Origin: Deltaproteobacteria bacterium
GTDB lineage: Bacteria > Desulfobacterota > Syntrophia > Syntrophales > UBA8958
DNA: 36,079 nt
Direction: 5' to 3'
NCBI GenBank assembly: GCA_029553375.1
Contig: JAKPCH010000024.1
Span: 1-36,079, forward strand
In this document: positions 11,460-14,400 of the stretch, in pieces
Numbering within the stretch: position 1 is the first letter of the stretch
Layout of the letters: every line of letters begins with the position of its first letter
Notes under the pieces: generated by a model
Told to the model about the DNA's origin: nothing
Databases searched by the model: none
What the model saw: the letters and a program-made list of their open reading frames with translations, nothing else
Position numbers and translations under genes: made by a program

Positions 11460-14400
11460 ATGGATGTCAGCAGGCGAGGTTTCTTGAAGATCTCCGGTGC
11501 TGTGCTGGCGGCAAGCGGTCTGGGTATAAGTCTCAGACCCGTGTCCGCTTACGCCCAGCCCTTGAAGATCAAGTATGCGAAAGAGACCACGACGATCTGC
11601 CCTTACTGTTCCGTGGGTTGCAGTATCATCGTATCCACGCGGGACGGGAAGGTGATCAACACCGAGGGCGATCCGGACAGCCCCATCAATCGCGGTTCTC
11701 TATGCAGCAAGGGCGGGTCTATCTATCAGATGGCGGTCAACAAGAACCGTTTGACGAAGCCCCTCTACCGCGCCCCCTACGCCACGGAGTGGAAGGAGGT
11801 CGAATGGGAGTGGGCCTTCGAGAAGATCGCCGAGAACATCAAGCGTAGTAGGGACGCCAGCTTTAAGGCGACGAACGACAAGGGCGAGGCGGTCAACCGC
11901 ACGGAGGGCATCGCCTCCGTCGGGAGCGCCGCCTTGGACCTCGAGGAGTGTTTCACCTATCAGAAATTCTTGCGGGGGTTGGGCCTGGTCTACATAGAGA
12001 ACCAGGCCAGGATTTGACACAGCCCGACTGTACCGGCTCTGGCAGAGTCGTATGGACGCGGCGCGATGACGAATCACTGGGTGGACTTCCGCAATGCGGA
12101 CGTCTTTTTGATCATGGGCAGCAACCCCGCCTCCAACCACCCCGTCTCCTTCAAGTGGATCCAAGAGGCGGTGGACAAGCGGGGGGCGAAGATCCTCTGC
12201 GTCGATCCCCGATTCACCCAGTCGGCGGCCAAGGCCCATGTCTATGCCCCCATCCGCTCGGGCACGGACATCGCCTTCCTGGGGGGGATGATAAATTACA
12301 TCATCGAGAACAAGCTCTATTTCGAGGAGTACGTCAAACACTACACCAACGCCTCCTTCCTGGTTAACCCGGCCTTCAAGCTCCCCGGGGAGAACAACGG
12401 CGTCTTCTCCGGCCTGGAGGGGGCCAAGTACAACAAGGAGACCTGGTCCTACCAGACGAACCCGGACGGGACAATCAAGAAGGACCCGACCCTCCAGGAT
12501 CCCAACTGTGTCTTCCAGTTGCTGAAGAAGCACTACTCCCGCTACACCCCGGAGCTGGTGGAGAGGATCACCGGTACGCCCAAGGACAAGATGCTGGAGA
12601 TCTACAAGATCTACGCCTCTACGGGCCGACCCGACCGGGCGGGGGTGGAGCTCTACGCCATGGGCTGGACCCAGCACACCGTGGGGACGCAGAACATCAG
12701 GACCATGGCCATCATCCAGCTCCTTCTGGGCAATATCGGCATCGCCGGGGGCGGTGTGGCGGCCATGCGGGGTGAGTCCAACGTCCAGGGATCGACGGAT
12801 CACGGCCTGTTGTTCCACATCTGGCCGGGCTACCTGGGGACGCCCACGGGTTCCCTGGCGACTTTGAAGGCCTACAACGAAAAGCGGACGCCGACGACGA
12901 AGGAGAAGAACAGCCTCAACTGGTGGAAGAACTTCCCCAAGTACTCGGCGAGCTTCCTGAGGTCCATGTACGGCACCAACGCCACCCTCGAGGAGGCCTA
13001 CGGCTACATGCCCAAGCTGGACGACGGGATGAACTGCTCGTGGCTCATGATCTTCGACCAGATGTACAAGGGCAAGTTCACCGGATTCTTCGCCTGGGGC
13101 ATGAACCCCGCCTGCAGCGGCGCCCATTCCAACAAGGTCCGCCAGGCCTTGACGAAACTCGATTGGCTGGTGAACGTCAATCTCTTCGACAACGAGACGG
13201 GTTCCTTCTGGTGCGGCCCCGGGATGGATCCCACGAAGATCAAGACGGAGGTCTTCATGTTGCCCTGCGCCTCTTCCGTGGAGAAGGAGGGCAGCATCGC
13301 CAACAGCGGCCGCCTCCAGCAGTGGCGTTACAAGGCCGTCAATCCCCCGGGGCAGGCCCTGCCCGACGGGGACATCATGAGCGAGATCTTCTTCAAGGTG
13401 AAGGAGCTCTACGAGCAGCACGGCGGCCCCCTGAAAGAGGCCATCACGAAGCTGACCTGGCCCTACGGGAAGAAGACCCTGGACGGTCACTTCCACTACG
13501 ATCCCCGTAAGGTGGCGGCGGAGATCAACGGCTTCTTCCTGGAGGACAAGAAGGTGGAGAACCCAACGAAGAAGGGGGAATTCCGGGAGTTCAAGAAGGG
13601 GGACCTGGTTCCCTCCTTCGCCTGGCTCCAGGACGACGGTTCCACCTCTTCGGGGTGTTGGATCTACTGCGGTTCCGTGTCGGAGAAGGGGATCCTCTCC
13701 ATGCGGCGCGGTCAGGCCGATCCCACCGGCCTGGGTTTGTATCCCGAGTGGGCCTGGTCCTGGCCCGTCAACCGGCGGATCATTTACAACGGCGCCTCCG
13801 TGGATCCCACGGGCAAGCCCTGGGATCCCAAGCGGGCCGTCATTCAGTGGGACGGCACGAAGTGGGTCGGTGACGTCCCCGACGGTGTGGGTGACCCCGG
13901 TTCCGGGAGGCCGCCCTTCATCATGAAACCCGACGGGGTGGCCAGCATCTACGGTCCCGGCCTTTCGGACGGTCCCTTCCCGGAGCACTACGAGCCCCTC
14001 GAGTGCCCCGTGGAGAAGAACCTCCTGTCGCCCCAGAAGCACAACCCCGTGATCAAACGCTTCGACAAGCCCGGCGTGGGCTCCGATATCGACGCCTATG
14101 CCAGCGTCGCGTCCTGCGATCCCAGGTATCCCTTCATCTGCTCCACCTACCGGGTGAGCGAGCACTGGCAGACGGGCGTCCTGACCCGCTGGTGCCCCTG
14201 GCTGGCGGAGATGCAGCCCGGCATGTTCGTGGAGATGAGTCAGGAGCTGGCCCGGGAGAAGGGGATCAGGAGCGGGGACAAGGTGATCGTGAAGTCCTCC
14301 CGGGGGGAGGTGGAGTGCACGGCCATCGTCACCCCTCGTTTCAAACCTTTCGTCATCGACGGGAACGTCATCCATGAGGTAGGTATCCCCTGGCATTTCG

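What the first reader, a model, noticed from the sequence alone, without database searches (positions are those of the whole stretch)
12015..12050. Selenocysteine recoding site in the formate dehydrogenase catalytic subunit
An in-frame UGA at the active-site position is followed by a SECIS-like hairpin with apical loop GGCUCU. The reading frame continues for over 840 codons with full family similarity. Automated annotation would split this gene or call it a pseudogene.
Basis: partly seen in the sequence, partly recalled or inferred. Interest (0 to 1): 0.6.

Follow-up and report, generated by a model that had tools for sequence, protein, structure and literature searches.

The report
Selenocysteine site in formate dehydrogenase

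Summary
The ORF at 11460-14561 (+) is an FdnG-type formate dehydrogenase (TIGR01553, 1345 bits) with one in-frame TGA at 12015-12017, at the active-site residue (NQARI-U-HSPTV). Of 109 homologous sites found without assuming the codon, all have TGA. The genome carries selA, selC (anticodon UCA, base 73 = G), selD (itself with an in-frame TGA) and selB, in fact two SelB paralogues. The gene heads an fdnGHI operon.

One detail of the reading fails. The conserved hairpin is not an E. coli-like stem with open loop GGCUCU. It is a 7-bp stem CGGCUCU/AGAGUCG closed by a GGC triloop (12034-12050). Codons 192-197 are the most synonymously frozen stretch of the whole gene. In four of five Cys-coding homologues that freezing is gone although the protein sequence is nearly the same.

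Ordinary selenoprotein biology, now well supported. Low interest. The triloop SECIS and the second SelB are minor extras.

The parts
11460..14561 (+). fdnG-like formate dehydrogenase catalytic subunit, selenoprotein (1033 residues with Sec186), twin-arginine start SRRGFLK
   Evidence: TIGR01553 1345.5 bits against cut-off 814 over residues 2-1032; Pfam Molybdopterin, Fe4S4 and dinucleotide-binding domains; TAT_signal match at 20.0 bits, just under its cut-off of 22.7
12015..12017 (+). UGA codon for Sec186 in ARI-U-HSPTV
   Evidence: All 109 homologous sites in the unbiased first scan are TGA; Cys (TGC/TGT) at this residue in five non-Sec homologues
12034..12050 (+). SECIS hairpin CGGCUCU-GGC-AGAGUCG, 7 bp (one G-U), triloop GGC
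   Evidence: MFE fold; all seven pairs kept in 98 of 99 distinct sites with the core; one compensatory C-G to A-U change in L259; zero synonymous entropy; lost in four of five Cys homologues
12041..12043 (+). apical triloop GGC, 23 nt after the UGA; the third base is C or G in relatives
   Evidence: Column counts C 80, G 18 of 98; loop base variable, stem bases frozen
14576..15364 (+). fdnH-like iron-sulphur subunit
   Evidence: TIGR01582 291 bits (just under cut-off 334.7), Form-deh_trans PF09163
15367..16038 (+). fdnI-like cytochrome b subunit
   Evidence: TIGR01583 156.7 bits over cut-off 115.85; PF01292

Best explanation
The gene encodes a membrane-associated, probably periplasmic FdnGHI-type formate dehydrogenase whose active-site ligand is selenocysteine 186, encoded by UGA. 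During translation SelB-GTP-Sec-tRNA(Sec) is recruited by the mRNA hairpin whose loop lies 23 nt after the UGA (7-bp stem, GGC triloop) and inserts Sec in place of release-factor termination. Shown here: the frame, the UGA, the family, the sel genes, the conserved hairpin and its coupling to UGA. Inferred: that SelB (most likely the fdhD-linked SelB1) binds this hairpin, that Sec is inserted in the cell, and that the enzyme oxidises or produces formate for syntrophic metabolism.
For: TIGR01553 match through the UGA. TGA at every homologous site in the unbiased scan, and '1 TGA' is the usual state of full-length hits in order and phylum. selA 601 bits, selD 389 bits, selC over the gathering score, selB 370 bits. 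The only UCA-anticodon tRNA seen has G73, the Ser/Sec type. Codons 192-197 have zero synonymous variation in 69 homologues and are the minimum of the whole gene. Stem kept in 98 of 99 distinct sites with the core, one compensatory change. Four of five homologues with Cys instead of Sec encode nearly the same peptide with different codons. The element meets the published bSECIS model: loop 3-9 nt with G among its first two bases, stem 4-16 bp, spacing 16-37 nt, energy at most -7.5 (PMC13188914). selD in the same genome has a GGA-triloop hairpin after its own UGA (z -2.7).
Against: No direct evidence of Sec in the protein. The hairpin is not more stable than shuffled sequence. Near-invariance leaves only one covarying pair, seen once. 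The genome is a fragmented draft (96 contigs).
Confidence: 0.97

Rival explanations
1. UGA is recoded to Sec, but through the E. coli-like hairpin that the first reader drew, with open apical loop GGCUCU at nt 21-26 (counted from the U of UGA) and bulged U17-A18.
For: GGCUCU sits at the place of the E. coli fdhF loop (from memory of that element); C20-G27 is kept in 97 of 98 sites; U17 and U24 are invariant.
Against: Pair 19-28 forms in 22 of 98 sites; the four apical pairs together in 11 of 98. Energy -3.4 against -8.1 kcal/mol, pair probabilities 0.0. Does not explain the freezing of nt 30-36. The C20 to A change in L259 breaks its top pair but is compensated in the triloop stem.
Confidence: 0.05
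2. UGA is decoded as cysteine by a selC*-type tRNA-Cys with its own SelB*, as described for some Desulfobacterales and Syntrophobacterales.
For: The genome has a second SelB, and a selB* downstream of selC* is known in related groups (PMC7609411). A relative, G051, has a UCA tRNA with A1:U72 and U73 next to its second selB.
Against: No tRNA lies near the second SelB here, and no second tRNA-Sec-like gene with UCA was found genome-wide, although the G051 tRNA scores 53.6 with the same model. The genome's own selC has G73. Relatives with a single SelB carry the same UGA and hairpin.
Confidence: 0.015
3. Pseudogene or sequencing error: a Cys codon misread or mutated to TGA.
For: Cys homologues exist.
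Against: TGA in all 109 unbiased homologous sites, long intact frame on both sides, full sel gene set.
Confidence: 0.002

Closest known systems
FdnG/FdoG (FDH-N alpha, TIGR01553) selenoproteins
   Same: Full-length family match, Sec at the UH[SAG]P motif, fdnGHI order, twin-arginine start
   Different: Nothing of note in the protein; the residue five before Sec is N instead of the usual H
Bacterial SECIS (bSECIS model of Zhang and Gladyshev)
   Same: Hairpin directly after UGA, 7-bp stem, GG-starting small loop, 23-nt spacing
   Different: Triloop and letter-for-letter conservation over many families of the phylum and a few outside it
E. coli fdhF/fdnG-type SECIS (GGUCU-like apical loop, bulged U)
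   Same: Same distance from UGA; shares C20, U24, U26, G28 with the GCC-RGUCU-GGC class found in 18 distinct homologous sites
   Different: Here those bases (except G28) are stem, not loop; no single bulged U is needed

Membership tests
Formate dehydrogenase-N alpha (TIGR01553) | Score over curated cut-off across the whole protein | tested here: met
   1345.5 bits against 814.2, residues 2-1032
Formate dehydrogenase-N alpha (TIGR01553) | Partner iron-sulphur and cytochrome b subunits in one operon | tested here: met
   Adjacent ORFs 14576-15364 (TIGR01582, somewhat under its cut-off) and 15367-16038 (TIGR01583, over its cut-off)
Selenoprotein encoded by UGA | In-frame UGA aligned with Cys or Sec of homologues | tested here: met
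Selenoprotein encoded by UGA | selA, selB, selC and selD in the genome | tested here: met
Selenoprotein encoded by UGA | Sec in the mature protein | not testable with these tools
   needs mass spectrometry or 75Se labelling
bSECIS consensus | Loop 3-9 nt with G in its first two positions, stem 4-16 bp, 16-37 nt from UGA, energy at most -7.5 kcal/mol | tested here: met
   GGC loop, 7 bp, 23 nt, -8.1 kcal/mol; model as given in PMC13188914
E. coli-type SECIS | GGUCU-like apical loop on a stem with bulged U17 | tested here: not met
   Required pairs absent in most homologues; 11 of 98 keep all four apical pairs
selC*/selB* cysteine suppressor system | tRNA-Sec-like tRNA-Cys gene upstream of a second selB | tested here: not met
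   A second selB exists but no tRNA lies beside it

The most novel reading that the evidence does not exclude
Formate dehydrogenases of this phylum use two alternative SECIS folds at the same place after the UGA: a frozen GGN-triloop stem (98 distinct sites) and a classical GCC-RGUCU-GGC hairpin (18). At least two relatives (G017 and G037) carry both on one contig while having a single detected SelB, so one SelB would read two quite different hairpins, with the triloop form bound in a mode not known from E. coli or Moorella.
Probability: 0.35. Interest if true: 0.35.

Novelty: new member of a known kind. Interest (0 to 1): 0.17.

Why it matters
It turns a gene that automatic annotation would split in two into a full selenoenzyme of a syntrophic bacterium, and gives a clean natural test (Sec against Cys homologues with nearly the same peptide) that the frozen codons serve UGA recoding. 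The refined hairpin matters for SECIS prediction: a tool tuned to GGUCU-type loops would draw the wrong fold here.

Tried and rejected
Two SECIS classes read by two SelBs: rejected, because most relatives with the triloop element have one SelB, and G017 and G037 carry both element classes with one SelB. Rfam has no SECIS match here. Thermodynamic z-scores were not informative. A selC* tRNA beside the second SelB was sought and not found. MvhD/FlpD as a further selenoprotein in this genome: its frame has no stop. Two of the seven stop-free homologues fetched for the Cys test (L289, L295) gave no recognisable site with my motif and are not counted.

Full report
Observation. The window lies in a draft genome of 2.40 Mb in 96 contigs; its closest named relatives are Syntrophales (Smithella, Syntrophus and other Syntrophaceae). 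Reading TGA as Sec, the frame 11460-14561 (+) gives 1033 residues with one internal TGA at 12015-12017, residue 186, in NQARI-U-HSPTVPALAESYGRGAMTNHW. The protein matches TIGR01553 (formate dehydrogenase-N alpha) at 1345.5 bits from residue 2 to 1032. Genes for the iron-sulphur subunit and the cytochrome b subunit follow at 14576-15364 and 15367-16038.

Is the TGA real and functional? A motif scan of the fetched loci that allowed any residue at the site found 109 places, and all 109 read TGA. In whole-genome searches of 60 relatives and of 247 genomes of the phylum, '1 TGA' is the usual state of full-length hits. The genome has selA (601 bits), selB (370 bits), selD (389 bits, with its own in-frame TGA) and one tRNA-Sec over the gathering score. 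That tRNA has anticodon UCA and G at position 73.

Which hairpin? The MFE folds all pair GGCUCU with AGAGUC around the triloop GGC. Stability is not above shuffled sequence, so the case rests on comparison. I collected 168 homologous sites, 121 distinct. Ninety-nine share the core GGCTCTGG; 98 of them keep all seven pairs of the triloop stem. The class was defined by those pairs, so the informative number is the single failure (L108, where T34 is A). One sequence (L259) changes C20-G36 to A-U, a compensatory change. The loop's third base varies (C or G) while the stem does not. Eighteen other distinct sites instead form a classical hairpin with stem GCC/GGC and loop RGUCU.

Codon freezing. In 69 full-length homologues the mean relative synonymous entropy is 0.79 over 817 informative codons. 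The window of codons 192-197, exactly the hairpin, is the minimum of the gene at 0.00; only eight codons in the whole gene are invariant, five of them here and two the UGA itself and the His after it. This is tied to the UGA and not to the peptide: four of five homologues with Cys at the site (L290-L293) encode nearly the same peptide with other codons, while the fifth (L294) still carries the intact element, as expected of a recent Sec-to-Cys change. I regard this as the strongest evidence in the file.

A second SelB. The genome has two full-length SelB paralogues, about 40% identical, both over the curated cut-off and both with the SelB winged-helix domains. SelB1 lies beside fdhD and belongs to the Syntrophales clade; SelB2 lies after a YedE selenium-transporter gene and a YedF-like gene and groups with a SelB of G008 from the same family. 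Known second SelBs in these groups go with selC* tRNA-Cys genes (PMC7609411); a relative, G051, fits that description, but this genome has no tRNA beside SelB2. Which SelB reads the fdnG hairpin is not known.

Mechanism. SelB-GTP-Sec-tRNA(Sec) bound to the 12034-12050 hairpin delivers Sec at the UGA. Frame, machinery and RNA element are shown by sequence; binding and insertion are inferred from the established bacterial system. Membership in the bSECIS model is met on all four published criteria; membership in the E. coli-type SECIS is not met.

Verdict. An ordinary, well-supported selenoprotein. Limits: no expression or protein data, a draft genome, a selenoproteome that was not scanned completely, and homologues that are related to each other, so counts are not independent events.

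Noticed in passing
G000:C71:9947-11836 (L011, L192): Second full-length SelB paralogue (about 40% identical to SelB1), after yedE-like and yedF-like genes, with no tRNA beside it. Only G008 of 60 relatives has a clear orthologue (60% identity).
   Followed up: partly
L011:1213-1251: Strong hairpin (z -3.0) upstream of the second selB, between a small ORF and the selB start; possibly a regulatory SECIS-like element. Not tested comparatively.
   Followed up: no
L193:4919-5010 (G051): tRNA-Sec-like gene with UCA anticodon, A1:U72 and U73 just upstream of a second selB in a relative; fits the selC*-selB* cysteine system described by others.
   Followed up: partly
L018 (G000:C55:66293-67222): selD has an in-frame TGA in GAG-U-ACKIG followed by a 6-bp hairpin with GGA triloop, so SelD is probably a selenoprotein too.
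   Followed up: partly
L066, L092: Two FDH genes on one contig with different SECIS classes (GGC triloop and GCC-GGUCU-GGC), in genomes with one detected SelB.
   Followed up: partly
L294 (G129:C31): A Cys-coding homologue that still carries the intact triloop element, apparently a fossil SECIS.
   Followed up: partly
window 17343-19472 (-): NifS-type cysteine desulfurase whose ORF has about 330 extra N-terminal residues without a family match; probably an over-long ORF call.
   Followed up: no
window 3-1763 (+): CobW-type GTPase with about 285 N-terminal residues without a family match, cut by or close to the window edge.
   Followed up: no
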